Shown piece after piece: positions 32,878 to 51,618 of a stretch of DNA of 64,000 bases; position 1 is the stretch's first letter; every line of letters starts with the position of its first letter. The position numbers and the translations under genes are program-made. The notes under the pieces are model-generated. The model was not told the origin of the DNA. It made no database searches and saw only the letters and a program-made list of their open reading frames with translations. The DNA is from Dictyobacter formicarum (GTDB lineage Bacteria; Chloroflexota; Ktedonobacteria; Ktedonobacterales; Ktedonobacteraceae): contig NZ_BNJJ01000008.1 of the NCBI RefSeq assembly GCF_016587435.1, positions 1 to 64,000 on the forward strand, read 5' to 3'.

Positions 32878-33450
32878 CTAGCGAGGCAGGTAGGTCGCGA
32901 TCACGACACCGTTGTCCGTCGTCTTTGTGCCGACGAGCCGGAGAGCAGCGAATGCGCCGCCATCGGGGAAGAGGCGGCGTCCTGATCCTAGAACCAGTGG
33001 GTGAATCAGGAGCACGTACTCATCGATGAGGTTGCGCCGCATCAGCGATTGGATCAACACACCACTGCCCATGATCAAGAAGTTTTTGTCGGATTCCTGT
33101 TTGAGGGTGGACATGGCCTCTGCCGCGTCGCCCTTCAGCAGCGTGGAATTGATCCATGGAAGCGGCTCCTTTAACGTCGTTGAGGCGACGTACTTCTGGG
33201 TGTTGTTTAGCATCTCCGTGTAGGGATTATTGGTCTGGTGGGGCCAGAAGGAGTAGAATTGCTCATATGTCCGTCGGCCCAGTAGCAGGGTGTTGGTATA
33301 GGACTTACTGTCTCCGGCCTGCGCCATCGCGGCATAGGCCGCCGCCCAGCCACCGTGCTCGAAGCCGCCACGGCGGTCCTCGTCCGGCTTTCCCGGCGCC
33401 TGCATAACCCCATCGAGTGTCAGATTTGTGAAGACAACGACTTTACCCAT
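32878..33450 (-). CDS. Dihydrofolate-reductase-fold protein (RibD C-terminal type)
   Basis: 190-residue NADPH-binding reductase-like protein, YwjB/YyaP type. Features: VVFTNLTLDGVMQAPG, LLLGRRTYEQFYSFWP, KYVASTTL, the nucleotide loop NFLIMGSGVLIQSLM and the closing DEYVLLIHPLVLGSGRRLF. This combination is a hallmark of the pfam01872 single-domain family, usually of unknown substrate. AGGAAA sits 7 bases before ATG. An IS607 element ends only ~20-30 bases upstream, so its original promoter may have been displaced and its transcription may depend on the element. Confidence 0.9.
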   Translation of the reverse strand: MGKVVVFTNLTLDGVMQAPGKPDEDRRGGFEHGGWAAAYAAMAQAGDSKSYTNTLLLGRRTYEQFYSFWPHQTNNPYTEMLNNTQKYVASTTLKEPLPWINSTLLKGDAAEAMSTLKQESDKNFLIMGSGVLIQSLMRRNLIDEYVLLIHPLVLGSGRRLFPDGGAFAALRLVGTKTTDNGVVIATYLPR

Positions 33451-33477
33451 GAATAGTTTCCTGCTTTCTAAAATGTG

Positions 33478-34722
33478 TTAAAACATACTTAGTTGCTGCA
33501 TTTGGGCCGGACAGGAAGCCTGCTTGACTTCTACGCTGTTTTGGTCCTCTTGCAGTACACCGCACTCTGGTTGAGTGTGTGGCCCTAGCCGGGCAAGGAA
33601 CCTTGTCAAGATGTTTACCGCGCTGTTATCGTCGCGGTCCATGACAAGTCCACATTCCAGGCAACGATACGTCCGTTTCCATAACGGCATGGCTTGAAGG
33701 TGTCGACACCCGCTGCACATTTTCGACGTATCGCGTTCGTCTACGATTTGAAGATCTTTCCCGTACAACTGACATTTATAGGTGAGCATCGCAATAAACG
33801 TGTAGAGTCCCCAATCGTTGAACACCCTACGGTTGAGGCGCTTATTCTTTTCCCGATGCTCTTTCATCACCATTTGTCGTTGAGAAAGATCTCCAACCAC
33901 CACGGTTCTTTCAACCAGACGGTGGGCGATAAGGCGGGATGCTTTATGCAGGCTATCCCGTTGTTTTCGGCGTTTTTTCTCACTCACCCGCTTATAGACC
34001 TTGCTCAGATGCTTATAGCGACGTGACTTCTTCTTACACGTATCTCGCTTGGAGCGTATCTTGTCGAGTTGGCGGTTGTACCACTGCCCTCCCTTGAATC
34101 CGCCAACGTGATAGAACGTTCCCTGCTCATTGACCCCTGTTGCCAATGTCTTTATGCCCATATCGAAGGCCACAACCCCAGCAGGTTTGCACGGCTCTTC
34201 TTCCCGCTCAGCCACAAAGGAGGCATAGTAGTGACCCCGAGCATCGCGGCTAATGGCCACCTCTTTGAAGTGTTCGGGAGGGGGTTCAGTGAGCTTCGCC
34301 TGAATGTTTGGGTGCACCTTTGGACCGTGCTTACCACCACCGCCCGTTGGCAAAATGAGATGGCCGTCCTTCATCTTGATATACATGGCAGGATAGTTCA
34401 GCGTAAAGAAGTTGTGTCGGGGGCGCACCCGTGGGAACCCAGGGGTTTCCCCTGCTTGCACACGCCGAAAGAATGCTTTCATGGCTCCATCCAGACGGAA
34501 GTACACCTCATGGAGAAGCTTGCTATAAACCTGAATAAGCTCAGGATCGTGTTGCTTGCTCTGCTGAAGGCTTTTCTTTGCTTCGTAGAGGTTCCACTTT
34601 TCGCCATTGCGTAACTTCATCACCCACCAGTTGTACAGCCCTCGACACTTGCCTTGCATGAATTCAAGGGTAGTAGCGTCCTGCTCCGAGATGTCAAGCT
34701 TAATCTTTGTGCTCAGCAGCAT
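33478..34722 (-). CDS. tnpB: TnpB RNA-guided nuclease of the IS607 element
   Basis: 414-residue OMEGA nuclease. The RuvC-like core starts with Asp187 (VVAFDMGIKTL). The zinc ribbon is C336-x2-C339...C354-x2-C357, and Asp364 follows in MDRDDNSAVN. The middle catalytic motif, normally IxxEDL, reads VVVGDLS with Gly277 instead of Glu. A Glu329 in IVDERDTSK, 52 residues on, sits where Fanzor-related TnpBs carry a relocated glutamate, so the protein is likely still active. Start ATG 34722 overlaps the intact-frame end of tnpA (34700). A guide RNA would be expected from the 3' end of tnpB and the flank just past 33478. Confidence 0.9.
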   Translation of the reverse strand: MLLSTKIKLDISEQDATTLEFMQGKCRGLYNWWVMKLRNGEKWNLYEAKKSLQQSKQHDPELIQVYSKLLHEVYFRLDGAMKAFFRRVQAGETPGFPRVRPRHNFFTLNYPAMYIKMKDGHLILPTGGGGKHGPKVHPNIQAKLTEPPPEHFKEVAISRDARGHYYASFVAEREEEPCKPAGVVAFDMGIKTLATGVNEQGTFYHVGGFKGGQWYNRQLDKIRSKRDTCKKKSRRYKHLSKVYKRVSEKKRRKQRDSLHKASRLIAHRLVERTVVVGDLSQRQMVMKEHREKNKRLNRRVFNDWGLYTFIAMLTYKCQLYGKDLQIVDERDTSKMCSGCRHLQAMPLWKRTYRCLECGLVMDRDDNSAVNILTRFLARLGPHTQPECGVLQEDQNSVEVKQASCPAQMQQLSMF

Positions 34723-35313
34723 CTTTCAACCCCCGCTTATATGACCGCAACCCGTGGAGCCTTGCCGAGAAAACTGTGGTGATAGCAATCAGATCCTGCA
34801 CAATTCTTGCTCTGGAGAAAGGGTTTCTCCATTCACAATGACAATTTCGCAGTTGTGCTGCTGGCAAAAAGCTTCAAAGTAGCTGAACCCAAACCGGACC
34901 AACCTATCACGATGGGCGATAATCAGACGTTTTACCTGTCCGAGTTCCACCATCTCCATGATCCGGTTGAAGTTTTTTCGCTTGTAATTGAGTCCACTGC
35001 CAATATCTTGCATCCACTCATCAACAGCAATTTGGTGGTCTTGACAGTACGTTTCAAGAGCCTTCAGCTGATTGGCAAGATCTGGCTTTTGCGTCACTCC
35101 AGACACCCTTGCATACACGATGGTTTGTCCTTTGGCAGCCGCTTTCAGTCCTCGGTATTCAAGGTATTGATCGTGTGTGTAGTAGCGTCGGTTTGATTGA
35201 GGGGACCGATAGGCAACAAGCTTCCCCTCTCGATCCCACTTTTGCAACGTCTTTGTTGACTTGCCAATCAATTGCCCAAACTCCTGAATGTTGTATGTGT
35301 TCTTCATGCACAA
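34700..35313 (-). pseudogene. tnpA: IS607 serine recombinase, frameshifted near its end
   Basis: The first 174 codons are a normal IS607 TnpA: a MerR-like HTH (YNIQEFGQLIGKSTKTLQKW) and a small-serine-recombinase domain with catalytic Ser in YARVSG and the LIIAHRDRLVRFG motif. The frame then ends in LSPEQELCRI near 34789. One base further in phase, the sequence reads VQDLIAITTVFSARLHGLRS and ends at 34700, inside tnpB, exactly the usual TnpA tail. A one-base loss at about 34801 explains this. The catalytic core is intact but the C-terminal helix is lost, so mobility is doubtful. Confidence 0.85.
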
Positions 35314-38793: not shown

Positions 38794-40737
38794 ATGAGCA
38801 GTTTACGCACTTTCCTGTCCCAATGGCATTGGCAGCCAGAAACATGGAAGACTCGGCGCGTCCACCCTGGCGATGGACGGCTGTGTCGTTCGATCTTTAG
38901 CGCCGGGGCCCTGCTGGCCTTCATGTGCGTGATGGCCACCAGCGGCATCGCTGGTGCGCTGGCGACCACCAGTGGTGTCGCATTGGCCGCATCGGAAGTT
39001 CCACCCAGCCAATCTAACTTCGGCCCAAATGTCTATATTTTCAATCCAGGCATGCCGCAAAGCGAGATCCAGGCGACGGTCGATGCGGTGGCGAACCAAC
39101 AGATCTCTAACCAATTTGGAACCCAGCGCTATGCGCTACTGTTCGAGCCCGGCACATATGGGTCCAGTACCAATCCCCTTAACTTTCAGGTCGGCTACTA
39201 CACGACCGTGGCGGGCCTCGGCCTCTCCCCGAACGACGTCGTTATCAACGGGTCCATTGATGTGCGCAACCAGTGTTTCGGCGCCAACAACTGCATCGCA
39301 CTCGATAACTTCTGGCGCTCGTTATCGAATTTGAGCATCAACGTGACCACCCCGCACGCCGGTTGCTACAGCGGCGAATTCTGGGCCGTATCGCAGGCCG
39401 CGCCGATGCGGCGTGTCCACGTCAACGGGCCCACCACCCTGATGGACTATTGCAGCGGTCCCTCGTACGCGAGTGGCGGCTTCATCGCCGATTCACAGTT
39501 CGATGGCAACGTGGTTAACGGCTCGCAGCAGCAGTGGCTGGTCAGAAACAGCAAGCTGAGCGGTTGGAGCAACGGCGTCTGGAACCAGGTGTTTTCTGGC
39601 GCCGTGGGAGCGCCCGCCCAGTGTTTCCCCGCGCAGTCGTCATGTGGTGGTGGCCCGTATACCACGCTCGCGACCAGTCCAGTGACGCGAGAGGCGCCAT
39701 ACCTGTACATGGACTCTAATAAGAGCTACAACGTCTTCGTGCCCTCGGTACAGTACAACTCCGTGGGTACAACGTGGGCCAGCGGCGCGACTCCCGGCTT
39801 GTCCATCCCAATCGACAAATTCTTTATTGCCCAGCCGACAGACTCCGCCGCGACGATCAACGACGCATTAGATTCCGGCAGAAATCTCATCCTGACTCCG
39901 GGCGTCTATCACCTGGAACAGAGCATCAATGTCACGCGTCCCGATACCGTGGTGCTTGGCCTTGGCTTCCCGACTCTGATCCCTGAAAATGGTATCGTAC
40001 CAATGACAGTTGCCAGCGCGAAAGGGATCTCTCTCTCAGGAATGATCTTCGACGCCGGCACAACGAACTCGCCGGAGTTGCTGCAGGTTGGCAGTGGTCA
40101 TGCTCGCAGCGACCATGAGGCCTCCGATCCGACCACTCTGCAGGATGTGTTCTTCCGTATCGGCGGCGCGGAACCGGGCAAAGCAACGAGCAGCCTGGTT
40201 GTCAATAGCGACAACGTTATCCTCGATGACATCTGGGCCTGGCGTGCCGATCACGGCAACGGCGTTGGTTGGAACGACAACACCGCCGACACTGGCGTCA
40301 TCGTCAACGGTAACAATGTGACCGCGTACGGCCTTTTTGTCGAGCATTACCAGAAGTACGAGGTGATCTGGAACGGGAATGGTGGCACTGATATCTTCTT
40401 CCAGAACGAGATGCCCTACGATCCACCCAGCCAGGCTGTGTGGATGGAAGCCCCCGGGGTTGATGGCTGGGCTGCCTTCAAGGTTGCCAATAGCGTGACC
40501 AGCTTCAGCGGATACGGCATGGGCAGCTATAGCTTCTTCAATCAGGGGGTGGACATCTACGCCGCACGCGCATTTGAGGTTCCCACCACCCTTCCAGCGT
40601 CAAGCCTCCACGACCTGCTCACGATCTTCCTCTCCACGAGTGGGTCCGGTGGCATCCTGCACGTAATCAACGACGCCGGCGGGTCATCGACCAGAGCCAA
40701 TCCGGATGTCCCGGTCACTGTCGTGAGCTATCCGTAA
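38794..40737 (+). CDS. Secreted beta-helix protein (coagulation factor 5/8-type annotation group)
   Basis: 647-residue exported protein. ATG at 38794 has GAGGAG 8 bases upstream; a longer frame from 38674 lacks a site. Residues ~32-64 are a hydrophobic helix ending near VALA-ASE, a probable signal peptide. The rest is a right-handed beta-helix of the type seen in many actinobacterial proteins annotated as factor 5/8-type: YTTVAGLGLSPNDVVINGSI, then repeated short strands with N/G turns (GVIVNGNNVTAYGLFVEHYQ) and a C-terminal GYGMGSYSFFNQGVDIYAAR. Several Cys pairs (QCFGANNC, QCFPAQSSC) suggest disulphides. A role in cell-surface polysaccharide binding or cleavage is likely but unproved. Its 3' end was copied into the downstream duplication. 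Confidence 0.75.
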   Translation: MSSLRTFLSQWHWQPETWKTRRVHPGDGRLCRSIFSAGALLAFMCVMATSGIAGALATTSGVALAASEVPPSQSNFGPNVYIFNPGMPQSEIQATVDAVANQQISNQFGTQRYALLFEPGTYGSSTNPLNFQVGYYTTVAGLGLSPNDVVINGSIDVRNQCFGANNCIALDNFWRSLSNLSINVTTPHAGCYSGEFWAVSQAAPMRRVHVNGPTTLMDYCSGPSYASGGFIADSQFDGNVVNGSQQQWLVRNSKLSGWSNGVWNQVFSGAVGAPAQCFPAQSSCGGGPYTTLATSPVTREAPYLYMDSNKSYNVFVPSVQYNSVGTTWASGATPGLSIPIDKFFIAQPTDSAATINDALDSGRNLILTPGVYHLEQSINVTRPDTVVLGLGFPTLIPENGIVPMTVASAKGISLSGMIFDAGTTNSPELLQVGSGHARSDHEASDPTTLQDVFFRIGGAEPGKATSSLVVNSDNVILDDIWAWRADHGNGVGWNDNTADTGVIVNGNNVTAYGLFVEHYQKYEVIWNGNGGTDIFFQNEMPYDPPSQAVWMEAPGVDGWAAFKVANSVTSFSGYGMGSYSFFNQGVDIYAARAFEVPTTLPASSLHDLLTIFLSTSGSGGILHVINDAGGSSTRANPDVPVTVVSYP

Positions 40738-41299
40738 TGGCCTGACACCTCTTTTGAGTGTTTCTCATCACGTCTTATCAAGCTCCATCTCCATGGATGG
40801 AGCTTGATAAGCTACCAACACAGCTTGTTTTACCCTGGTGTCTCAACATTAATAGCGACGACTATGATACTGAATGTGGCCAGGGCACATCCTTCCTTTC
40901 CCTCTTCTTTGCACTGCTGGTCTACATGCCTATAACGCTTACCTATTCCTGGTTAGATTTTTTAACATATATTTTTTCCCAAAATGCCAAATAGGTATAT
41001 TTGAGTTAAAACCAGTTACTATTAATCTAGCAATACGTATTCAACAATAGCAACGTATGTGAGGTCGCATATATTGCGGATTTAGAGAGACACATGCACA
41101 ATTTATTTAACCATATTCCCAATTTTAACCAGAAGATGTATTTTTTGCATGTATATGTCTCATAAGCATTGGAATAATATTACTATTACAACGTAATGGG
41201 AGAATCTTTTCGCTTCTGCAACGTCTAATAAGAGAACATAAACAAAATATGTTTTTTTATAGTCACTCAGTATTTTTGAAGAGAAAAAGGCGCCTTTAT
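40738..41299. other. Long AT-rich leader of the first GT2 gene
   Basis: No gene. Contains the terminator-like hairpin at 40775-40810 and then ~450 bases of leader. The leader is alignable along its length with the leader of the second copy (44996-45717), for example GTCTCAACATTAAT and TGTATATGTCTCATA, though much more diverged than the coding parts. Confidence 0.5.
40775..40810. terminator. Hairpin after the beta-helix gene
   Basis: TTATCAAGCTCCATC pairs perfectly with GATGGAGCTTGATAA around a 6-base loop, 37 bases after the stop. The homologous hairpin at 45135-45170 keeps the pairing through compensating changes. No U-tract follows. Confidence 0.6.
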
Positions 41300-43456
41300 A
41301 TGCAAATTTTTTCTAACAGCGATCACCAATCGCAGTTTAAATTTACACGTAAATCTCAACTATTAAAGCGAGCACAGGAGCAAATTGAACAGCTTGAGTT
41401 CCCTGCAAATATTGAAGAACATCTATCAAGGGAATCCCCTAATCCTCCAACAGTTGAGATGCTGGAAACTCCGAACCTTGCCACCCCTCTGATTTATGAC
41501 GCGGAGACCGCACATTCTCCTGCTCTTCAAGTTCATGACGCGGAGACCGCACATTCTCCTGCTCTTCAAGTTCATGACGTGGAGATCGCATATTCTCCTG
41601 ATCCTATAAGTGATTCCACGGAGACCACGCGTATGCCAGCCCATCCGATTGAAATCATCAATACGCGGCGCATGCCGAGGGTTGAGGCCCTCTCGCAAAG
41701 AAAATTGCATAAGCAACTATCTATAGATGATGAAAAAGTTACCCAGCGTCACCGCAAAGGTACCCACCTCCCTTATCTGAAGAGTGTGATGAGCCGACGA
41801 CAGAAGGTCGTGTTTTTGATGTTATTAGCCCTTTGGATCGCCTCCCTCGTTTTTTTCTGGACCTGGTGGCTCCAGCCAGCACACGTGGTGACGCAAACGG
41901 GGATGCTTATCAACAGCCTGGTCTTACTCTGGTCAACCGTTCTGCCTGGATACTACTTCTTTTTTGTCGCCCGCATGCATGAGCCTGATCCCTCGCTGCC
42001 GTTGCCGGATGGACGTGTCGCCATGGTCGTCACCAAAGCGCCATCTGAGCCGTGGGCCATTGTCGAAAAGACGCTCCTGGCCATGAAGGCACAGAACTTT
42101 CCCCGTCCATTCGATGTCTGGCTTGCCGATGAAGATCCGTCCGAAGAAGTTCTGCAGTGGTGCATTAAGAACGGTATCTGGGTCTCCTGTCGCAAGAACA
42201 TGCCGGATTATCAAAATGTGTCATGGCCGCGCAGACAGAAAAGCAAGGAAGGCAATCTGGCGTATTTTTATGATACCTGTGCTTATCGCCACTATGATTT
42301 CGTGGCCCAATTGGATGCCGATCATGTGCCAGAGCCAGACTACCTTACCCACATGATGGCGCCGTTCTATGATCCCGCGGTGGGCTATGTGGCTGCACCC
42401 AGTATTTGCGACGCCAACGCCTCCTCCTCCTGGGTCTCACGTGCCCGCCTGTATACGGAAGCCGGACTCCACGGGGCCATGCAAGCAGGGCATAGCTATG
42501 GCTTTGCTCCTCTGTGCATCGGCAGCCATTATGCCGTACGTACCAGTGCCTTACAAGAGATCGGTGGGCTGGGACCAGAGTTGGCTGAGGATCACTCGAC
42601 CACGCTGCTCTTTAACGCCTATGGCTGGCGTGGGGCCTTTGCTTTCAAGGCTCTCGCCCATGGAGACGGCGCGGAATGTCTCGCCGATAGCGTCACGCAA
42701 GAATTTCAATGGAGCCGCAGTCTCACCAAGCTGCTGTTGACCCTGACCCCGATCTATTGGAAACATTTACGCTTGCGGCTCAAGCTCCAATTCTTTTTCG
42801 CGCAGTTATGGTATCCATTATCTTCGGGCAACATGATTGCCATCAGTCTCCTGCCTCTGATCGCGCTGATCACACAAACTGCCTTCGCGAATGTAACGTA
42901 CCTAGATTTTCTGCTGCATTACGCCGCGACAACCTTCACCTGTCTCTTGATCGTAGGGTGGATTCAGCGTCAGGGATGGTTACGACCGAGCAACGCAAAA
43001 ATCTTGAGCTGGGAAACCGTTGTTTTCCCCATGGTGACCTGGCCCTGGATGTTCATGGGGGTCGTCATGGCAACGATTAGCGCCATTTTCAAGAAAGAGC
43101 TCCCATTTCGCGTCACGCCAAAGGGGCAGGCAAGCATCAAACCCATGCCCAACCGTGTCCTGTTACCATACACGCTCATCACGATGTTCACCTTCGCCTA
43201 CTCACTCCTGTTTGTGGGTGGGGGAGCGGCCATCTATCACTGGTTTGCCACAGCCAACATCGTATTCTATACGTTTATACTCTGGGTCTGCATCCTGGGT
43301 CATCTGTATGACAATCGTGCGTATGGTCTGTGGAAGGTGCTGCTCTGTATCAAAGGATCTTTATGGCAAGTCGCTTGCGCTACTATATTGACAATCATCG
43401 ATCTGCAGCTCCATTCGATATACATATTTAATCTATTCTTTATCCCTGGCAGATAA
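41300..43456 (+). CDS. GT2-family membrane glycosyltransferase, copy 1
   Basis: 718-residue inner-membrane processive glycosyltransferase of the cellulose-synthase-like type. Residues 1-150 are a variable cytosolic head with a 13-residue direct repeat. Two membrane segments precede the catalytic domain (VAMVVTKAPSEPW...). The substrate Asp pair is D339/D341 in QLDADHVPEP, the ED pair is E430-D431 (AEDHSTT), and the product-binding motif is QEFQW at 467-471. Several membrane segments follow. It should polymerise sugar at the membrane and extrude the chain. The ATG at 41300 follows AAAGG; an upstream start at 41249 has no ribosome site. The paired glycosidase starts 57 bases downstream. Confidence 0.85.
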   Translation: MQIFSNSDHQSQFKFTRKSQLLKRAQEQIEQLEFPANIEEHLSRESPNPPTVEMLETPNLATPLIYDAETAHSPALQVHDAETAHSPALQVHDVEIAYSPDPISDSTETTRMPAHPIEIINTRRMPRVEALSQRKLHKQLSIDDEKVTQRHRKGTHLPYLKSVMSRRQKVVFLMLLALWIASLVFFWTWWLQPAHVVTQTGMLINSLVLLWSTVLPGYYFFFVARMHEPDPSLPLPDGRVAMVVTKAPSEPWAIVEKTLLAMKAQNFPRPFDVWLADEDPSEEVLQWCIKNGIWVSCRKNMPDYQNVSWPRRQKSKEGNLAYFYDTCAYRHYDFVAQLDADHVPEPDYLTHMMAPFYDPAVGYVAAPSICDANASSSWVSRARLYTEAGLHGAMQAGHSYGFAPLCIGSHYAVRTSALQEIGGLGPELAEDHSTTLLFNAYGWRGAFAFKALAHGDGAECLADSVTQEFQWSRSLTKLLLTLTPIYWKHLRLRLKLQFFFAQLWYPLSSGNMIAISLLPLIALITQTAFANVTYLDFLLHYAATTFTCLLIVGWIQRQGWLRPSNAKILSWETVVFPMVTWPWMFMGVVMATISAIFKKELPFRVTPKGQASIKPMPNRVLLPYTLITMFTFAYSLLFVGGGAAIYHWFATANIVFYTFILWVCILGHLYDNRAYGLWKVLLCIKGSLWQVACATILTIIDLQLHSIYIFNLFFIPGR
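41498..41614 (+). repeat. 39-bp in-frame tandem repeat in the GT2 head
   Basis: Two identical 39-base units (41498-41536, 41537-41575) encode DAETAHSPALQVH twice; a third, degenerate unit (41576-41614) reads DVEIAYSPDPISD. The second GT2 copy lacks the repeat. Probably slippage in a flexible linker. Confidence 0.9.
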
Positions 43457-43513
43457 AGCGGGTCAACCCTTTCGAGACAATGAACAGCATATAGACAAGG
43501 CAAAAAAAACGCT

Positions 43514-44995
43514 ATGAAAGTACTTCGCTTCTCTCGTCTCTGGTATTTCAGTTTGCTGGCACTCCTACTGAGCGCCTGTTCTCCAACAACATCCTGGATG
43601 CCATCCAGTTCTCATCCGACCAGTACTGTTCCGGCGGTAACAGAGAAAGGAACAGTGATTAGCGTAAAGGGGACCCAATGGGGCGTCAGCACGTGCTACA
43701 TCGGCGCGACCGAGGGTAGCAGTGACTTTAATAGTGCCGACTTCACAGATCTTGGCATCAATTCTTATCATGTCTATGGGGGCATGTCGCGCTGGGAGTA
43801 TCAAGATGACAGTTCGACGTATGGTTGGCCAACCATAGATCAGATCAAGGCCAATCCCGATGTGATCAATTGGTCCTGGTGGGACAATGCCATGACGAAT
43901 CCGCCCAATGGCAGCGATTACTGGTGGTCATATCAAAACCCTGGTTGGCACGGAAATGCTCGTACATTCTTCAGCACTCTGAAGGCTGATCATATTCGCA
44001 CGCTGTTAACACTGCGCAACGTCGATAATCTCAACAACCCATCCTGGATCGCCAACCCACCAACCACACAGGCTGATTGGAATGAGTGGTGGGAACATGT
44101 CTTTGCCACTGTCTACTGGCTTAATGTGCGCAATGATTATAATGTCAACGACTTTGAAGTACTGAATGAGCCCAACCTGGCCGAACAGGGATGGAAGGGC
44201 AACGAGGCCCAATATATCACCTTATTCCACTATACGGCTGATGCCATCAAATATGTCTATCACACGTATTTGCCGGGACGCTCGTATCATATCTATGGAG
44301 CAGCGGGCACAACTGGCAATGCCTGGGCTAGAGATCTTCTCCAACAGATTCCTGACGACATCGATACGGTTGACCTTCACGACTATGATTCAAATATTCT
44401 CCCTCCCGTGCAAATAGCACACTTGTGGCTCAATGAGACAGGCCACGCAACCGATCCAGTCTGGCTGAGCGAGTGGGGAAGCTACTTGCGAAACAATAAG
44501 TACGATACCGCACCGGTGGGTGTCTCAATTATCAACAATCTCATAAGAGGCTCTGAACCTGGCAATAACCATGTCTATGGCAGTAATATTTTCTCTCTCT
44601 ATGATTATGGCGCTGTTCCCTTTGGGTTGATTAGCAGTGCTGGAACGCGCCGTCTTGATTATTATGCACTCCGCATGGCGATTCGTGCGTTACAGGGATG
44701 CCGTCCCACCTATCAGAGTATCGTCAATCACCCTGGTTCTCCCATCCAGGCCATCACAACCAGGAGCACCAATGGGCATCTCTCCTTACTGATTACCAAC
44801 TCGAATAGCAAGGCCAACCAGCAACTTACGGCGGACCTGTCAGCACTCCTGCGCCAGGGTAGCGGCACAATTCGGCAATTTGATGCACAACACCAGGACC
44901 AGGTTGTGGGGCACACACTCGTCCAAAATGGGCGCATGAAGCTGACTGTGCCTGCGCAAGGTGCCCTTCTCGTGGACATCATACCTTCCCGCTAA
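43514..44995 (+). CDS. Lipoprotein glycoside hydrolase (clan GH-A-like), copy 1
   Basis: 493-residue exported lipoprotein: basic head, hydrophobic helix and lipobox LLSAC with Cys22. A TIM-barrel catalytic domain follows, rich in Trp (DYWWSYQNPGWHGNARTFF). The acid/base candidate is E219 in VLNEPN and the nucleophile candidate E320 in WLSEWGS; the NEP and xEWG pattern is typical of GH39/GH5-like enzymes. The last ~100 residues are a beta-sandwich (HLSLLITNSNSKANQQL). It is 57 bases after the GT2 gene, and the pair probably makes and trims the same polymer, as in other synthase-glycosidase pairs. Confidence 0.8.
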   Translation: MKVLRFSRLWYFSLLALLLSACSPTTSWMPSSSHPTSTVPAVTEKGTVISVKGTQWGVSTCYIGATEGSSDFNSADFTDLGINSYHVYGGMSRWEYQDDSSTYGWPTIDQIKANPDVINWSWWDNAMTNPPNGSDYWWSYQNPGWHGNARTFFSTLKADHIRTLLTLRNVDNLNNPSWIANPPTTQADWNEWWEHVFATVYWLNVRNDYNVNDFEVLNEPNLAEQGWKGNEAQYITLFHYTADAIKYVYHTYLPGRSYHIYGAAGTTGNAWARDLLQQIPDDIDTVDLHDYDSNILPPVQIAHLWLNETGHATDPVWLSEWGSYLRNNKYDTAPVGVSIINNLIRGSEPGNNHVYGSNIFSLYDYGAVPFGLISSAGTRRLDYYALRMAIRALQGCRPTYQSIVNHPGSPIQAITTRSTNGHLSLLITNSNSKANQQLTADLSALLRQGSGTIRQFDAQHQDQVVGHTLVQNGRMKLTVPAQGALLVDIIPSR

Positions 44996-45717
44996 ATCAT
45001 TGTTAGAAAGACTTTGTATCATCCCAAATTTTAAAGAGAGTCAGGGAAGAGATTGCCAAAACTCGGACGTCCCAGTCACCGTAGTGAGCTATCCGTAACA
45101 CCTGACACCTCTTTTGAGAATCCCTCATCACGTTTTATCAAGCTTCGTCTCCACGGCCGAAGCTTGATAAGCCCAACAACAGCTGGCTTTGCTTCAGTGT
45201 CTCAACATTAATGGCGACGACTATGATGTTGAATGCAGACAGGATATGTCTTTTCTTTTCTTCTTTGTACTGCTGGTCTACAGATCTATAACGCTCTTAT
45301 ATCTCTGGTTAGACTTCTTAGTATATATTTCCCCCAAAATGATGTAGTGACTCCCAATAGGCATATTCAAGCTAAACTTGTTACTATCAATCCCGTAATA
45401 CGTATTGAATGATAGCAAAATATGTATAACAGCATATATTGCTTAATCCAAGGAGACACATACAAAATTTATCCTTAACTATATAATGCACAAAAACAGG
45501 AAGATTTATTTTCTGTAATCTATGACTCTCTGATTTTTGATTAGAGGATGTGATTTTTGTGTCATTTTTTGTCTGTATATGTCTCATATACATTGGATTA
45601 ATATCAATATTACAAATTAATTGAAGAATCTTTCGCTTCTGCACTCCTGGTAAGAGAAAAACGGAGGTGTTTTTTACAGTCGCGCAAGATTTTTTGAAGA
45701 GGAAAAGGTATCTCCAT
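44996..45717. other. Duplication junction and leader of the second GT2 gene
   Basis: No gene. At 45063-45098 lies a scar reading SDVPVTVVSYP-stop, the last codons of the beta-helix gene, followed by its downstream hairpin and leader. So the duplicated block begins inside the beta-helix gene's 3' end. AAAAGG lies 9 bases before the ATG at 45718. Confidence 0.7.
45135..45170. terminator. Covarying copy of the beta-helix hairpin
   Basis: TTATCAAGCTTCG pairs with CGAAGCTTGATAA. Relative to the copy at 40775, both arms changed together (CTCCATC/GATGGAG to CTTCG/CGAAG), which argues the stem is selected. Confidence 0.55.
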
Positions 45718-47790
45718 ATGCAGATTTTTTCTAGCAGCGCTCGCCAATTGTGGCTCCAATTTATACGAAAACAACAATTATTAAAACAAGTACAGGCACA
45801 AACTGAACAGCCTGAGCTTCCTGTAAGTGTTGAAGAGAATCTGACAAAGTCAACCCCTGTTCTTCCAGCTGTTGAACTGGTAGAAACTCTGCATCTCACT
45901 GGCCCTCTGATTTATGAAACGGATACCACCCACTCCCTGGTTTCTGTGGTTGATTCCTCCCCAACCACACTCATGCCAGTCTATCCGATTGAAATCATCA
46001 ATACGCGGCGCATGCCGAGGGTTGAGGCCCTCTCACAAAGAAAATTTCACAAGCGACCGTCTATAGATAGTGGTGAGCAAGTCAACCACAAAGGTACCCA
46101 CCTCCCTTATCTGAAGAGCGTGATGAGCCGACGACAGAAGGTCGTGTTTTTGATGTTATTAGCCCTTTGGATCGCCTCCCTCGTTTTTTTCTGGACCTGG
46201 TGGCTCCAGCCAGCACACGTGGTGACGCAAACGGGTATGCTTATCAACAGCCTGGTCTTACTCTGGTCAACCGTTCTGCCTGGATACTACTTCTTTTTTG
46301 TCGCCCGCATGCATGAGCCTGATCCCTCGCTGCCGTTGCCGGACGGACGTGTCGCCATGGTCGTCACCAAAGCGCCATCCGAGCCGTGGGCCATTGTCGA
46401 AAAGACGCTCCTGGCCATGAAGGCACAGAACTTTCCCCGTCCATTCGATGTCTGGCTCGCCGATGAAGATCCGTCCGAAGAAGTTCTGCAGTGGTGCATT
46501 AAGAATCGCATCTGGGTCTCCTGTCGCAAGAACATGCCGGATTATCAAAATGTGTCATGGCCGCGCAGACAGAAAAGCAAGGAAGGCAATCTGGCGTATT
46601 TTTATGATACCTGTGCTTATCGCCACTATGATTTCGTGGCCCAATTGGATGCCGATCATGTGCCAGAGCCAGACTACCTTACCCACATGATGGCGCCGTT
46701 CTATGATCCTGCGGTGGGCTACGTGGCTGCACCCAGTATTTGCGACGCCAACGCCGCCTCCTCCTGGGTCTCACGTGCCCGCCTGTATACGGAAGCCGGA
46801 CTCCACGGGGCCATGCAAGCAGGGCATAGCTATGGCTTTGCTCCTCTGTGCATCGGCAGCCATTATGCCGTACGTACCAGTGCCTTACAAGAGATCGGTG
46901 GGCTGGGACCAGAGTTGGCTGAGGATCACTCGACCACGCTGCTCTTTAACGCCTATGGCTGGCGTGGGGCCTTTGCTTTCAAGGCTCTCGCTCATGGAGA
47001 CGGCGCGGAATGTCTCGCCGATAGCGTCACGCAAGAATTTCAATGGAGCCGCAGTCTCACCAAGCTGCTGTTGACCCTCACACCGATCTATTGGAAACAT
47101 TTACGCTTGCGGCTCAAGCTCCAATTCTTTTTCGCGCAGTTATGGTATCCATTATCTTCGGGCAACATGATTGCCATCAGTCTCCTGCCTCTGATCGCGC
47201 TGATCACACAAACCGCCTTCGCGAATGTAACGTACCCAGATTTTCTGCTGCACTACGCCGCGACAACCTTCACTTGTCTCTTGATCGTAGGGTGGATTCA
47301 GCGTCAGGGATGGTTACGACCGAGCAATGCAAAAATCTTGAGCTGGGAAACCGTTGTTTTCCCCATGGTGACCTGGCCCTGGATGTTCATGGGGGTCGTC
47401 ATGGCAACGATTAGCGCCATTTTCAAGAAAGAGCTCCCATTTCGTGTCACGCCAAAGGGGCAGGCAAGCATCAAACCCATGCCCAACCGTGTCCTGTTAC
47501 CATACACGCTCATCACGATGTTCACCTTCGCCTACTCACTCCTGTTTGTGGGTGGAGGAGCGGCCATCTATCACTGGTTTGCCACAGCCAACATCGTATT
47601 CTATACGTTTATACTCTGGGTCTGCATCCTGGGTCATCTGTATGACAATCGCGCGTATGGTCTGTGGAAGGTGCTGCTCTGTATCAAAGGATCTTTATGG
47701 CAAGTCGCTTGCGCTACCCTATTAGCAATACTTGATTTACATCTCCATTCTGTGTACCTCTTTAAGCTATTCTTTATTTCTGGTAGATAA
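45718..47790 (+). CDS. GT2-family membrane glycosyltransferase, copy 2
   Basis: 690-residue paralog of the protein at 41300-43456, from tandem duplication. The core from the PIEIINTRRMPRVEAL segment to QVACAT is nearly identical, with the same catalytic motifs (D311/D313, QEFQW), while the cytosolic head is quite different (no 13-aa repeat) and the last ~25 residues also differ (LLAILDLHLHSVYLF). This mosaic suggests exchange between copies. The GTG at 45667 is possible, but the ATG at 45718 has the better ribosome site. It may make a related polymer or give dosage. Confidence 0.85.
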   Translation: MQIFSSSARQLWLQFIRKQQLLKQVQAQTEQPELPVSVEENLTKSTPVLPAVELVETLHLTGPLIYETDTTHSLVSVVDSSPTTLMPVYPIEIINTRRMPRVEALSQRKFHKRPSIDSGEQVNHKGTHLPYLKSVMSRRQKVVFLMLLALWIASLVFFWTWWLQPAHVVTQTGMLINSLVLLWSTVLPGYYFFFVARMHEPDPSLPLPDGRVAMVVTKAPSEPWAIVEKTLLAMKAQNFPRPFDVWLADEDPSEEVLQWCIKNRIWVSCRKNMPDYQNVSWPRRQKSKEGNLAYFYDTCAYRHYDFVAQLDADHVPEPDYLTHMMAPFYDPAVGYVAAPSICDANAASSWVSRARLYTEAGLHGAMQAGHSYGFAPLCIGSHYAVRTSALQEIGGLGPELAEDHSTTLLFNAYGWRGAFAFKALAHGDGAECLADSVTQEFQWSRSLTKLLLTLTPIYWKHLRLRLKLQFFFAQLWYPLSSGNMIAISLLPLIALITQTAFANVTYPDFLLHYAATTFTCLLIVGWIQRQGWLRPSNAKILSWETVVFPMVTWPWMFMGVVMATISAIFKKELPFRVTPKGQASIKPMPNRVLLPYTLITMFTFAYSLLFVGGGAAIYHWFATANIVFYTFILWVCILGHLYDNRAYGLWKVLLCIKGSLWQVACATLLAILDLHLHSVYLFKLFFISGR

Positions 47791-47846
47791 AGCGGGTCAA
47801 CCCTTACGAGACAATGAACAGCATATAGACAAAGGCAAAAAACGCT

Positions 47847-49328
47847 ATGAAAGTACTTCGCTTCTCTCGTCTCTGGTATTTCAGTTTGCTGGCACTCCTC
47901 CTGAGCGCCTGTTCTCCAACAACATCCTGGATGCCATCCAGTTCTCATCCGACCAGTACTGTTCCGGCGGTAACAGAGAAAGGAACAGTGATTAGCGTAA
48001 AGGGGACCCAATGGGGCGTCAGCACGTGCTACATCGGCGCGACCGAGGGTAGCAGTGACTTTAATAGTGCCGACTTCATAGATCTTGGCATCAATTCTTA
48101 TCATGTCTATGGGGGCATGTCGCGCTGGGAGTATCAGGATGACAGTTCGATCTATGGTTGGCCAACTATAGATCAGATCAAGGCCAATCCCGATGTGATC
48201 AATTGGTCCTGGTGGGACAATGCCATGACGAATCCGCCCAATGGCAGCGATTACTGGTGGTCATATCAAAACTCTGGTTGGCACGGAAATGCTCGTACAT
48301 TCTTCAGCACTCTGAAGGCTGATCATATTCGCACGCTGTTAACGCTGCGCAACGTCGATAATAACCACAACCCATCCTGGATCGCCAACCCACCAACCAC
48401 ACAGGCTGATTGGAATGAGTGGTGGGAACATGTCTTTGCCACTGTCTACTGGCTTAATGTGCGCAATGATTATAATGTCAACGACTTTGAAGTACTGAAT
48501 GAGCCCAACGCAGCCGAACAGGGATGGAAGGGCAACGAGGCCCAATATATCACCTTATTCCACTATACGGCTGATGCCATCAAATATGTCTATCACACGT
48601 ATTTGCTGGGACGCTCGTATCATATCTATGGAGCAGCAGGCTCAACCGGCAATGCCTGGACTAAAGATCTTCTCCAACAGATCCCTGACGACATCGATAC
48701 GGTGGATATTCACGACTATGATCCAAATATTCTCCCGGCCGTGCAAAGGGCACACTTGTGGCTCAATGAGACACACCACACAAACTCTTCAGTCTGGCTG
48801 AGCGAGTGGGGCAGCTACGCACAAAACAATAAGTACGATACCGCACCGGTGGGTGTCTCAATTATCAACAATCTCATAAGAGGTTCTGAACCTGGCAATA
48901 ACTATGTCTATGGCAGTAATATTTTCTCACTCTACGATTACGATGCTATTCCGTTTGGGTTGATTAGCAGTGCTGGAACGCGCCGTCTTGATTATTATGC
49001 GCTCCGTATGGCGATTCGTGCGTTGCAAGGATGTTGTCCAACTTATCAAAGCACCGTCAATACACCTGGTTCCTCCATCCAGGCTATCACAACCAGGAGC
49101 ACCGATGGGCATCTCTCTTTGCTGATTACCAACTCGAATAGCAAGGCCAATCAGCAGCTTACGGCGGACCTGTCAGCGCTCCTGCACCAGGGCAGTGGCA
49201 CAATTCGGCAATTTGATGCACAACACCAGGACCAGGTTGTGGGGTACACACTCGTCCAAAATGGGCGCATGAAGCTGACTGTGCCTGCGCAAGGCGCTCT
49301 CCTCGTGGACATCATACCTTCCTACTAA
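47847..49328 (+). CDS. Lipoprotein glycoside hydrolase (clan GH-A-like), copy 2
   Basis: 493-residue twin of the protein at 43514-44995, same lipobox, NEPN and SEWGS catalytic candidates. Differences cluster in patches around the active-site loops (NLAEQ to NAAEQ; HDYDSNILPPVQIA to HDYDPNILPAVQRA; GHATDPV to HHTNSSV), so substrate fit may have changed slightly. It lies 56 bases after its GT2 gene. A 116-base gap then separates it from the end of the convergent two-component operon. Confidence 0.8.
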   Translation: MKVLRFSRLWYFSLLALLLSACSPTTSWMPSSSHPTSTVPAVTEKGTVISVKGTQWGVSTCYIGATEGSSDFNSADFIDLGINSYHVYGGMSRWEYQDDSSIYGWPTIDQIKANPDVINWSWWDNAMTNPPNGSDYWWSYQNSGWHGNARTFFSTLKADHIRTLLTLRNVDNNHNPSWIANPPTTQADWNEWWEHVFATVYWLNVRNDYNVNDFEVLNEPNAAEQGWKGNEAQYITLFHYTADAIKYVYHTYLLGRSYHIYGAAGSTGNAWTKDLLQQIPDDIDTVDIHDYDPNILPAVQRAHLWLNETHHTNSSVWLSEWGSYAQNNKYDTAPVGVSIINNLIRGSEPGNNYVYGSNIFSLYDYDAIPFGLISSAGTRRLDYYALRMAIRALQGCCPTYQSTVNTPGSSIQAITTRSTDGHLSLLITNSNSKANQQLTADLSALLHQGSGTIRQFDAQHQDQVVGYTLVQNGRMKLTVPAQGALLVDIIPSY

Positions 49329-49444
49329 ATCTTTTTCCTGAAGAACCTTACTCATTCCGAATTTTGAGGAAGAGCCGGGCAGGTATGGCTTGCGCGGTAA
49401 ATATATTATAGGTGATGAAAAATATTGTAAGGAAAGAGGCATGT

Positions 49445-50095
49445 TTATTTCCGGACAATTCCTTCTCGCCAGGCAAAGATTGCAGCCTGTGTGCGGTCGG
49501 CTAAATGTAGCTTGCTTAAAATGTTATTGACATGGCTTTTGACGGTTCCTTCACTGATCACCAGGTGTTCCGCGATCATGGCATTGTTGAGCCCGTTGGC
49601 AATTAAGCGCAGCACCTCCATCTCGCGTTCACTGAGTTCGTGAAATGGATTGATTTCCGCCCGGCGTTTTCCCTGCAATTCCTGGACCACGCGCGATGCG
49701 ATACGTGGATGAAGTATCGCCTCCCCTCGGGCGGCTCTATGGATTGCGTTGACGATCTCTTCTCCTGGAGATTCTTTAAGTAAATAGGAAAGCGCGCCGG
49801 CGCGGATGGCAGGGAAAATGTATTCATCCTGCACATAAGAGGTCAGGACTACAATGTGTATCTGGGGGCTTATCTGTTTAACGCGTTGCGTCGTCTCAAC
49901 CCCGTCTAAGCCCGGCATCGCGAGATCAAGGAGGAGCACATCCGGCATCAAATTTTTGACCAATTGAATGGCCTCTTCACCTGAACTGGCCTCACCAACT
50001 ACGCGTATATCAGATTGTGTGGCTAGAAAAGCCTGTATACCCTGCCGGACTACCACATGATCATCGACAATACCTACCCGAATTATCTCGGTCAT
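49445..50095 (-). CDS. NarL/FixJ-family response regulator
   Basis: 216-residue regulator. The receiver has D11-D12 and phospho-acceptor D57 in VLLLDLAMP, plus VVLTSYV and LLKES switch residues. The LuxR-type DNA-binding domain reads LSEREMEVLRLIANGLNN through GTVKSHVNNILSKL. Start ATG at 50095 overlaps the kinase stop as ATGA and has AAGGAGG 5 bases upstream, so it is translationally coupled and last in the four-gene minus-strand operon. It probably controls that operon's own ABC transporter, as in BceRS/LiaRS-like systems; this is inferred from context. Confidence 0.93.
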   Translation of the reverse strand: MTEIIRVGIVDDHVVVRQGIQAFLATQSDIRVVGEASSGEEAIQLVKNLMPDVLLLDLAMPGLDGVETTQRVKQISPQIHIVVLTSYVQDEYIFPAIRAGALSYLLKESPGEEIVNAIHRAARGEAILHPRIASRVVQELQGKRRAEINPFHELSEREMEVLRLIANGLNNAMIAEHLVISEGTVKSHVNNILSKLHLADRTQAAIFAWREGIVRK

Positions 50096-51618
50096 TGTTC
50101 CTCCTTCTGAACTGCTACTGGAATGTGTACTTTGATTGACGTTCCACACGCTGTACTTTCAATGGCGAACAGACCATAAATAGCCTCAATGCGCTCACGC
50201 ATACTTTGTAGTCCTATACTATGCTTCTTCGCATGGACAGTAGAAGAGTTAAAACCATGTCCATCATCTGTTATGTTGAGTGTAATTGCGCCAGGAGTGG
50301 CTAACAGTTCGAGGGATACATTATGAGCCTCACTATGTCGGGCGATATTTGAGAGAGCTTCCTGGGTGACGCGAAAGATAGCCTGTTCAATTGCGGAAGT
50401 GAGGGGAGGAATCTGCTCTGTATGCACTGATAGCATAATAGCTGTACGCTGTGACCAGGCATGACAGAACTCTTCCAGCGCCACGATCAGGTTTTTATCA
50501 GTTAGCGCAACCGGACGAAGAGCTTCGATGAGTGTAGCCAATTCTTGCTGCGCAAGCACCGCTAACTTTTCCGCCTCAATAAGATGGTGATACGAGGAGG
50601 TCGCATCTTTCTGAAAAAGGACGCGTCCCGCTGACAATTGCATCTGTACGGCAAACAAATGTTGCTTTACTGCATCGTGCAAATCCCGTTTCAAGCGCGT
50701 GCGTTCCTCAATGATAGCGAGTTTCCCCCGCGTTAGTAGCAACATTTGTAGCTGCTCTGCCATGTTATTGAGATCTTTACTTAATTGTCCCAATTCGTCA
50801 TGAGCATCGTCATGAATCGCACTCTGGAATTCTCCCTGACTCCATTTCTGGGTTGCCTGAGCAATACGATGCAAGCGGCGCGTAAGATTATGAGAGATAA
50901 GCATGCCAGCACCTGTGCCTAACGCGCTGGCTAAGAAAATAAAGTAAAATCCTGCAGGTTGCCAGTAGCTCCACAGTGTAGCGATCAGTTGTTCTGGTGA
51001 CATGGTATATGTGTTTTGCGGAGCCAGAGAACCATTTACAGCCACAAGAAGACTGACCCTTGTTTGTTTATTACTGCCTTGTACAGGTATGCTAACAAGG
51101 GACTCACCTGTTGGAAGGTGATGAATAACCGGGGTGGAAGAACGATTGGGGTTGTTTATCTGACGTAAAGTTTGTTGTGTTGCTCGATAGGTCTGAAGCT
51201 TGCTCAGCTTTTGTTGTGTTTGTTGTGTGCATCTTCTGCTACCCAGAGAAATTAATTGTGAGCGCGTACAGGAGATTGATGTCAACAGTCGGCCGTTATG
51301 ATCAAAGAGAGCCACAAATGTAAGTCGGGGTTCATCCCGGTATATATCATCAAAGAGCGGTAGCGCAAGCGCGTAACGCAGGGATTCTTCATCCGAGTTT
51401 ACCGATATGTTGTCTATAGAGGTAGATATGCGCGCAGCCCCCTGTTTCTCTAATGCTTGCAGAGGCGATACATTGTCCTGTTGAAAATTCCTCAATAATG
51501 GCATCAACGTGATCGCGCACTCAATGGCCAGCGCCGCCACGAGCGTTGCTATCAGATATGTTAGTGTGAGGCGCCAGAAGAGACTGCCAAAGCGCCAATG
51601 TATCGCGCGCATGTACAT
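50092..51618 (-). CDS. NarL-type sensor histidine kinase with HAMP domain
   Basis: 508-residue membrane kinase. TM1 (residues ~14-38) and TM2 (~222-242) flank a ~180-residue extracytoplasmic sensor with two Cys (SISCTRS, SRRCTQQ). A HAMP linker (residues ~245-295: RRLHRIAQATQKW) follows, then HisKA_3 with His314 (RLKRDLHDAVKQH) and a HATPase_c domain (QEALSNIARHSEAHNV, DDGHGF, GLQSMRERI). The extracytoplasmic domain is not recognised. Start ATG at 51618 follows AAGGAG by 4 bases; TTG (51621) and ATG (51612) are alternatives. Coupled to the regulator by ATGA. Confidence 0.9.
   Translation of the reverse strand: MYMRAIHWRFGSLFWRLTLTYLIATLVAALAIECAITLMPLLRNFQQDNVSPLQALEKQGAARISTSIDNISVNSDEESLRYALALPLFDDIYRDEPRLTFVALFDHNGRLLTSISCTRSQLISLGSRRCTQQTQQKLSKLQTYRATQQTLRQINNPNRSSTPVIHHLPTGESLVSIPVQGSNKQTRVSLLVAVNGSLAPQNTYTMSPEQLIATLWSYWQPAGFYFIFLASALGTGAGMLISHNLTRRLHRIAQATQKWSQGEFQSAIHDDAHDELGQLSKDLNNMAEQLQMLLLTRGKLAIIEERTRLKRDLHDAVKQHLFAVQMQLSAGRVLFQKDATSSYHHLIEAEKLAVLAQQELATLIEALRPVALTDKNLIVALEEFCHAWSQRTAIMLSVHTEQIPPLTSAIEQAIFRVTQEALSNIARHSEAHNVSLELLATPGAITLNITDDGHGFNSSTVHAKKHSIGLQSMRERIEAIYGLFAIESTACGTSIKVHIPVAVQKEEQ

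What the first reader, a model, noticed from the sequence alone, without database searches (positions are those of the whole stretch)
40700..49328. Tandem duplication of a synthase-glycosidase module with a scar of the upstream gene
The block GT2 gene plus lipoprotein glycosidase occurs twice in tandem. At 45063-45098 lies SDVPVTVVSYP-stop, the final codons of the beta-helix gene (at 40702-40737), with no rest of that gene. So the duplicated segment began inside the beta-helix 3' end, giving the duplication boundary directly. Spacing suggests a unit of about 4.35 kb.
Basis: seen in the sequence. Interest (0 to 1): 0.7.

Follow-up and report, generated by a model that had tools for sequence, protein, structure and literature searches.

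The report
Recently joined, gene-converted polysaccharide module pair
Two side-by-side copies of a sugar-polymer synthase and its partner enzyme sit in a soil bacterium's genome, and the short leftover of a neighbouring gene between them suggests that the copies grew apart first and were put together only later, rather than being a simple local duplication.

Summary
A GT2 synthase + lipoprotein glycosidase module occurs twice in tandem (40703-45063; 45064 to about 49390). Unit 2 begins abruptly with the last 35 bp of the upstream beta-helix gene, 31/35 identical. A simple duplication starting in the beta-helix 3' end fits poorly. (1) Identity is mosaic: dS 0.48 in the synthase tail, 0.052 in its core, 0.68 at its C-terminus, 0.036 in the glycosidase's first half; tail and core reject each other's tree. 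This is gene conversion over an old split. (2) All four differences in the 11-codon scar are synonymous (neutral P 0.0045), and the hairpin after it covaries. The scar mostly diverged inside a working gene, so the junction is younger than the split. (3) Relative G026 has beta-helix and response regulator adjacent, without the module. Best reading: two diverged versions of the locus were joined late, probably by one-sided illegitimate recombination displacing the resident module (as proposed for Vibrio T6SS immunity arrays), then partly homogenised. Whole-locus duplication with late loss of the second beta-helix gene is not excluded. Known processes, unusually readable.

The parts
38794..40737 (+). 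Secreted beta-helix (pectate-lyase/epimerase-like) gene, intact copy; same gene family as the tail at the start of unit 2
   Evidence: ORF; Pfam PF12708 below cut-off, 24.6 of 27 bits; homologues at E 1e-20 in 20 of 47 genomes of the order
40703..45063 (+). Unit 1: beta-helix tail, stem-loop, spacer, GT2 synthase 1, glycosidase 1
   Evidence: Repeat families and alignment
45064..49390 (+). Unit 2; right end approximate (glycosidase 3' flanks stay alignable to about 49389)
45064..45098 (+). Scar: last 35 bp (11 codons plus 2 bp) of a beta-helix gene; 4 differences to 40703-40737, all synonymous
40775..40810 (+). Stem-loop after the beta-helix stop, unit 1 (no T run follows)
   Evidence: covariation with 4 relatives, 8 of 15 pairs
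45135..45170 (+). Stem-loop, unit 2; two pairs changed on both sides and one pair broken against unit 1
41249..43456 (+). GT2 synthase 1 (probable start 41300, MQIF, by comparison with P0001): variable tail, catalytic core, membrane helices
   Evidence: Pfam PF13506/PF13641; alignment A2
45667..47790 (+). GT2 synthase 2 (probable start 45718)
41786..43383 (+). Converted tract 1 (synthase core), partner about 46120-47717; dS 0.052
   Evidence: Mismatch map and dS; tree conflict
43504..44270 (+). Converted tract 2 (glycosidase first half), partner about 47837-48603; dS 0.036
43514..44995 (+). Lipoprotein glycosidase 1, clan GH-A-like, lipobox LSAC, Glu219/Glu320
47847..49328 (+). Lipoprotein glycosidase 2, same motifs
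49445..50149 (-). NarL-type response regulator marking the right flank; lies next to the beta-helix gene in relative G026

Best explanation
The tandem pair was assembled late from two already diverged versions of one locus (beta-helix gene, stem-loop, GT2 synthase, glycosidase). Most likely incoming DNA carrying beta-helix/GT/GH paired by homology on its left and joined illegitimately on its right into the 3' end of the resident beta-helix gene. That replaced the resident beta-helix body and pushed the resident module downstream, leaving 35 bp of its beta-helix gene as the scar. Gene conversion then made the synthase cores and the first half of the glycosidases nearly identical, perhaps copy 1 onto copy 2. 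The synthase tails, C-termini and upstream regions stayed different. Each unit would make and trim one extracellular polysaccharide. Shown: the mosaic, the tree conflict, the synonymous-only scar, the covarying stem, a relative without the module. Inferred: transfer, order of events, direction of conversion, function.
For: Synonymous divergence is uneven: tail 0.48, C-terminus 0.68, core 0.052, GH residues 1-250 0.036, 251-420 0.26, 421-493 0.21; constraint on protein sequence alone would not do this. Quartet tests: the tail supports copy1+P0001 against copy2+P0002 and rejects copy1+copy2 (AU p 0.008); the core supports copy1+copy2 and rejects the other two trees (p 7e-6 and 0.003). Scar: 4 of 4 differences synonymous; its GAC codon is absent from the 9 relatives' tails printed (all GAT), so that change is the scar's own. 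The stem-loop covaries in 8 of 15 pairs over 6 sequences. GH1 and GH2 3' flanks align to 45056, 7 bp from the junction, 0 of 1000 shuffles as good. G026 keeps beta-helix and response regulator adjacent without the module. Of the 120 GT homologues listed, one row names Dictyobacter sp. S3.2.2.5: P0001, of copy-1 type (names are given for only about a quarter of proteins). Mechanism: homology at one end, illegitimate joining at the other, mostly with 3-10 bp microhomology (PMC3240628, passages); displacement arrays (PMC5361080, passages).
Against: The scar test rests on 33 nt. No donor locus is held, and no DNA of P0001's or P0002's locus. The intact beta-helix protein groups with G026's (99/99), the species that also shares the right flank, so nothing marks it as foreign; the donor would have to be closer than any genome held. 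Microhomology at the junction is at most CGG and uses a stand-in parent. One stem pair of unit 2 is broken, and one covariation measure (further pair types) is not above shuffles (196 of 500). The C-terminus alone does not decide between the quartet trees. Late loss of a second beta-helix gene predicts the same scar.
Confidence: 0.45

Rival explanations
1. In-place tandem duplication: a 4.36 kb segment starting in the beta-helix 3' end was copied once next to itself, the copies diverged, and conversion later re-homogenised parts.
For: Simplest geometry; GH 3' flank homology runs to within 7 bp of the junction; abrupt left edge.
Against: Scar differences all synonymous, neutral P 0.0045; P 0.001-0.010 that the protein survives unchanged at 18-25% divergence; stem pairs changed on both sides between units.
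Confidence: 0.2
2. Whole-locus duplication (beta-helix, GT, GH) followed by late deletion of the second beta-helix body, leaving its tail.
For: Explains the scar's coding-type divergence equally well without foreign DNA.
Against: Needs the deletion's left end to fall about where alignable GH flank ends; no relative with the intermediate was seen (13 of 30 listed beta-helix places examined); only one named row of 120 GT homologues is from Dictyobacter sp. S3.2.2.5, so a loss there may also be needed.
Confidence: 0.22
3. Chimeric assembly: the contig joins two strains, one giving the left module and one the right.
For: The units differ like related species (dS 0.48-0.68 in the synthase tail and C-terminus, against 0.60-1.40 for the beta-helix gene to five relatives); reads are not available; the origin of the contig is unknown.
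Against: The junction falls where the two parents show no shared stretch beyond CGG, so overlap assembly has little reason to join there; in the synthase-core listing no mismatch-free run exceeds about 240 bp.
Confidence: 0.07
4. The beta-helix 3' end is an attachment site and the units are integrated elements flanked by att repeats.
For: Direct repeat of a gene's 3' end at a 4.36 kb interval.
Against: No third tail after unit 2; repeat only 89% identical; the two large ORFs of each unit are a GT2 and a glycosidase; smaller ORFs were not searched for an integrase.
Confidence: 0.03

Closest known systems
Vibrio cholerae T6SS orphan-immunity arrays by module displacement (PMC5361080, passages read)
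   Same: A new module is thought to enter by one-sided homology plus illegitimate joining, pushing older genes and, in one case, a gene 3' end downstream.
   Different: Here the displaced unit is a polysaccharide synthase/glycosidase pair, still complete, and converted to the other copy in its core.
Operon duplications in synthase-dependent exopolysaccharide systems (PMC7112194, passages read)
   Same: A whole synthase module present twice.
   Different: That survey reports all duplicated operons at least 10 kb apart and favours transfer; here they are directly adjacent.
BcsA-type cellulose synthases (GT2)
   Same: Aligns with BcsA structures (E 7.6e-15); DxD and ED motifs (motif names recalled); membrane GT2.
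   Different: Far below the BcsA model cut-off; QxxQW in place of QxxRW; no PilZ hit.
Clan GH-A glycosidases (GH30, GH39, GH51, GH79; clan assignment recalled)
   Different: About 9-20% identity to the 50 listed chains; below the Pfam GH39 cut-off; no NCBIfam family at E 0.001.

Membership tests
Displacement by homology-facilitated illegitimate recombination | Remnant of the displaced gene at the illegitimate junction | tested here: met
   35 bp beta-helix tail, diverged as coding sequence; late deletion would leave the same remnant
Displacement by homology-facilitated illegitimate recombination | 3-10 bp microhomology at the junction | tested here: inconclusive
   At most CGG, with the GH2 flank as stand-in parent
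Displacement by homology-facilitated illegitimate recombination | Foreign origin of the incoming segment | tested here: inconclusive
   Beta-helix groups with G026; no donor locus held
In-place tandem duplication | Colinear head-to-tail units | tested here: met
In-place tandem duplication | Truncated gene piece free of coding constraint since the split | tested here: not met
   4 of 4 differences synonymous, P 0.0045; 33 nt only
Gene conversion between paralogues | Low-dS tracts with tree conflict against neighbouring segments | tested here: met
BcsA cellulose synthase | Score above the curated CelA model cut-off | tested here: not met
   TIGR03030 68.9 bits, cut-off 699.1
BcsA cellulose synthase | QxxRW motif (definition recalled) | tested here: not met
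   QxxQW in 120 of 120 listed homologues; aligned to QRGRW
BcsA cellulose synthase | PilZ domain (recalled) | tested here: not met
   No PilZ hit at E 0.1 in Pfam
GH39 | Pfam PF01229 above gathering score | tested here: not met
   19.1 of 26 bits for copy 1, no hit for copy 2
Clan GH-A | Two catalytic glutamates on a barrel fold (definition recalled) | tested here: met
   Glu219 and Glu320 invariant in 16 of 16; fold; activity not tested
Bacterial lipoprotein | Lipobox after a signal helix | tested here: met
   LSAC at residues 19-22 in both copies

The most novel reading that the evidence does not exclude
Polysaccharide synthase modules in Ktedonobacteria behave like polymorphic-toxin cassettes: an incoming allelic module lands behind a shared beta-helix gene, pushes the old one downstream with a stub of that gene, and gene conversion then gives both synthases the same catalytic core while their cytoplasmic tails stay different. 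The result is two differently controlled machines for one polymer.
Probability: 0.25. Interest if true: 0.6.

Novelty: new variant of a known kind. Interest (0 to 1): 0.42.

Why it matters
The 33 coding bases left behind let one date the junction against the divergence of the two units, which is seldom possible. If displacement is right, a route proposed for toxin-immunity arrays also builds polysaccharide gene clusters. It also warns that high identity between tandem genes (98-99% DNA in the core) can hide a much older split.

Tried and rejected
Att-site integration: rejected, no third tail. Scar as a chance match: rejected, the homology continues through stem-loop, spacer and genes. Hairpin as a known RNA family: no Rfam match at gathering score for 40600-49600. 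Hairpin as a classic terminator: it is not among the 11 terminator-like sites, and no T run follows. Constraint alone as the cause of the mosaic: rejected by dS. Age test using right-flank genes in G028: G028 gave no histidine-kinase or 59743-gene match at E 1e-100 and only distant ABC-gene matches (42-48% identity), so there was no clean comparison. Foreign origin of the beta-helix gene: not supported. GT2 single-protein search of 47 genomes at 1e-100 found nothing; the alignment search at 1e-60 found 3 of 47. Paper searches for remnants in polysaccharide clusters or for Ktedonobacter synthases listed nothing on point (listings only); I make no wider claim of absence from print.
Full report
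Observation. The two units are real, in phase and colinear. The homology starts at 40703/45064, inside the last 12 codons of the beta-helix gene, and the sequence to the left does not match. The window has just these two tails (both strands to 9 mismatches, + strand to 12).

Identity is a mosaic. Scar 31/35; from the beta-helix stop through the stem-loop 61/74; upstream spacer 322/428 plus 77 gap columns; then 98-99% from about 41786 to 43383, a diverged synthase C-terminus, 98-99% again over most of 43504 to 44270, and a less similar glycosidase second half. Synonymous divergence follows the same blocks: 0.48 (tail), 0.052 (core), 0.68 (C-terminus), 0.036, 0.26 and 0.21 (glycosidase residues 1-250, 251-420, 421-493). 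For scale, the intact beta-helix gene differs from five relatives with dS 0.60 (G028) to 1.40 (G029). The two units therefore split at roughly the depth of related species.

Tree conflict. The tail of copy 1 (residues 18-180) is closer to P0001 of Dictyobacter sp. S3.2.2.5 (109/150 residues) than to copy 2 (80/135), while the core of copy 1 matches copy 2 at 520/523 and P0001 at 490/523. In the eight-row sets, forcing copies 1 and 2 together on tail plus C-terminus is rejected (AU p 0.004), and forcing copy 1 with P0001 on the core is rejected (p 0.0002). The four-row test gives the same answer for the tail and for the core; the 33-residue C-terminus alone decides nothing. In the core tree P0002 falls with the outgroups, away from copies 1, 2 and P0001, with support 87, which hints that copy 1 overwrote copy 2; this is weak.

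The scar. Tail and scar both read DVPVTVVSYP-stop. Four of 33 bases differ, all synonymous. If the scar were a free fragment, four random changes would all be silent with P 0.0045, and the protein would survive 18, 22 or 25% divergence with P 0.010, 0.003 or 0.001. The codon GAC is not found in any of the nine relatives printed, so at least that change belongs to the scar's own line. With no amino-acid change, neutral change since release of constraint is bounded at about 0.12 per site at P 0.05, against 0.24-0.34 per line expected since the split (half of dS 0.48-0.68; inference). The stretch after it forms a stem found also in G027, G028, G024 and G029; 8 of 15 pairs changed on both sides over six sequences. 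Of 500 shuffles, 0 reach the covariation score, 1 the number of such pairs, and 196 the number of further pair types; the tool warns that relatedness can inflate such counts. These six rows are the two units and four of the ten relatives' places printed, chosen because they show the stem. G026, G034, G035, G036, G001 and the second G028 copy have other sequences there, some with other hairpins, so the stem is conserved only in part of the group. Between the two units two pairs changed on both sides and one is broken.

Surroundings. In G026 the beta-helix gene is followed after about 680 bp by the response regulator that follows unit 2 in the window. The synteny runs on to 61363, where the fetched stretch ends, except that 56.3-59.6 kb of the window is missing there; on the left only 300 bp (33157-33455) match before the beta-helix gene. 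The glycosidase is present in 2 of 47 genomes of the order/class at E 1e-30, and the synthase in 3 of 47 at 1e-60, one of them a 372-base relic in G029. Synthase and glycosidase homologues share longest-contig lengths in four pairs among the 120 + 120 listed (P0003/P0123, P0007/P0136, P0010/P0157, P0016/P0209), which suggests a conserved pairing; equality of lengths is my only evidence for it. In the 35 collection loci, several cut short by contig ends, a GT like copy 1 (tblastn E 1e-10) lies near the glycosidase only in L001 and L033, so elsewhere, notably in cyanobacteria, the glycosidase seems to have other neighbours.

Origin. An in-place duplication explains the geometry but not the silent scar. 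A late joining explains both. The best fit is displacement: one-sided homology and an illegitimate join (described in PMC3240628, passages, with 3-10 bp microhomology in most cases), as proposed for Vibrio immunity arrays, where a 3' end of an effector gene is also shifted back (PMC5361080, passages). Whole-locus duplication with late beta-helix loss fits the scar as well. The intact beta-helix protein groups with G026, so no foreign origin is visible.

Novelty. PMC7112194 (passages) reports that all duplicated exopolysaccharide operons in its survey lie at least 10 kb apart; it also mentions repeated tandem duplication of single pgaC genes. A directly adjacent pair with a datable junction is therefore a new variant of known processes, not a new kind of system. 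PMC12453558 (passages) describes strain S3.2.2.5 as Dictyobacter halimunensis with a 3.42 Mbp contig, which fits the contig length given for P0001.

Noticed in passing
41493-41609: 39-base (13-residue) tandem repeat, three copies, in the tail of synthase 1; copy 2 has a single distant match.
   Followed up: no
41657 and 45997: Short motif INT[RL]xxP[RK] in the otherwise variable tail, kept in 8 of 120 listed synthase homologues, possibly a docking peptide.
   Followed up: partly
42698-42712 and 47032-47046: QxxQW in place of the usual QxxRW (recalled) in the synthase family, 120 of 120 listed.
   Followed up: partly
33478-35313: IS607-type element with serine transposase and TnpB RNA-guided nuclease.
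   Followed up: no
L068:8228-8586: Relic of the synthase (about 81% identical DNA) in G029, starting where the conserved core starts.
   Followed up: partly
L001:10001-14980: Tengunoibacter has two glycosidase genes about 3.6 kb apart with a GT2 gene on the opposite strand between them: another double arrangement.
   Followed up: partly
L002-L035: Glycosidase relatives occur in many Microcoleus/Leptolyngbya-type cyanobacteria, without a similar synthase found alongside in the stretches held.
   Followed up: no
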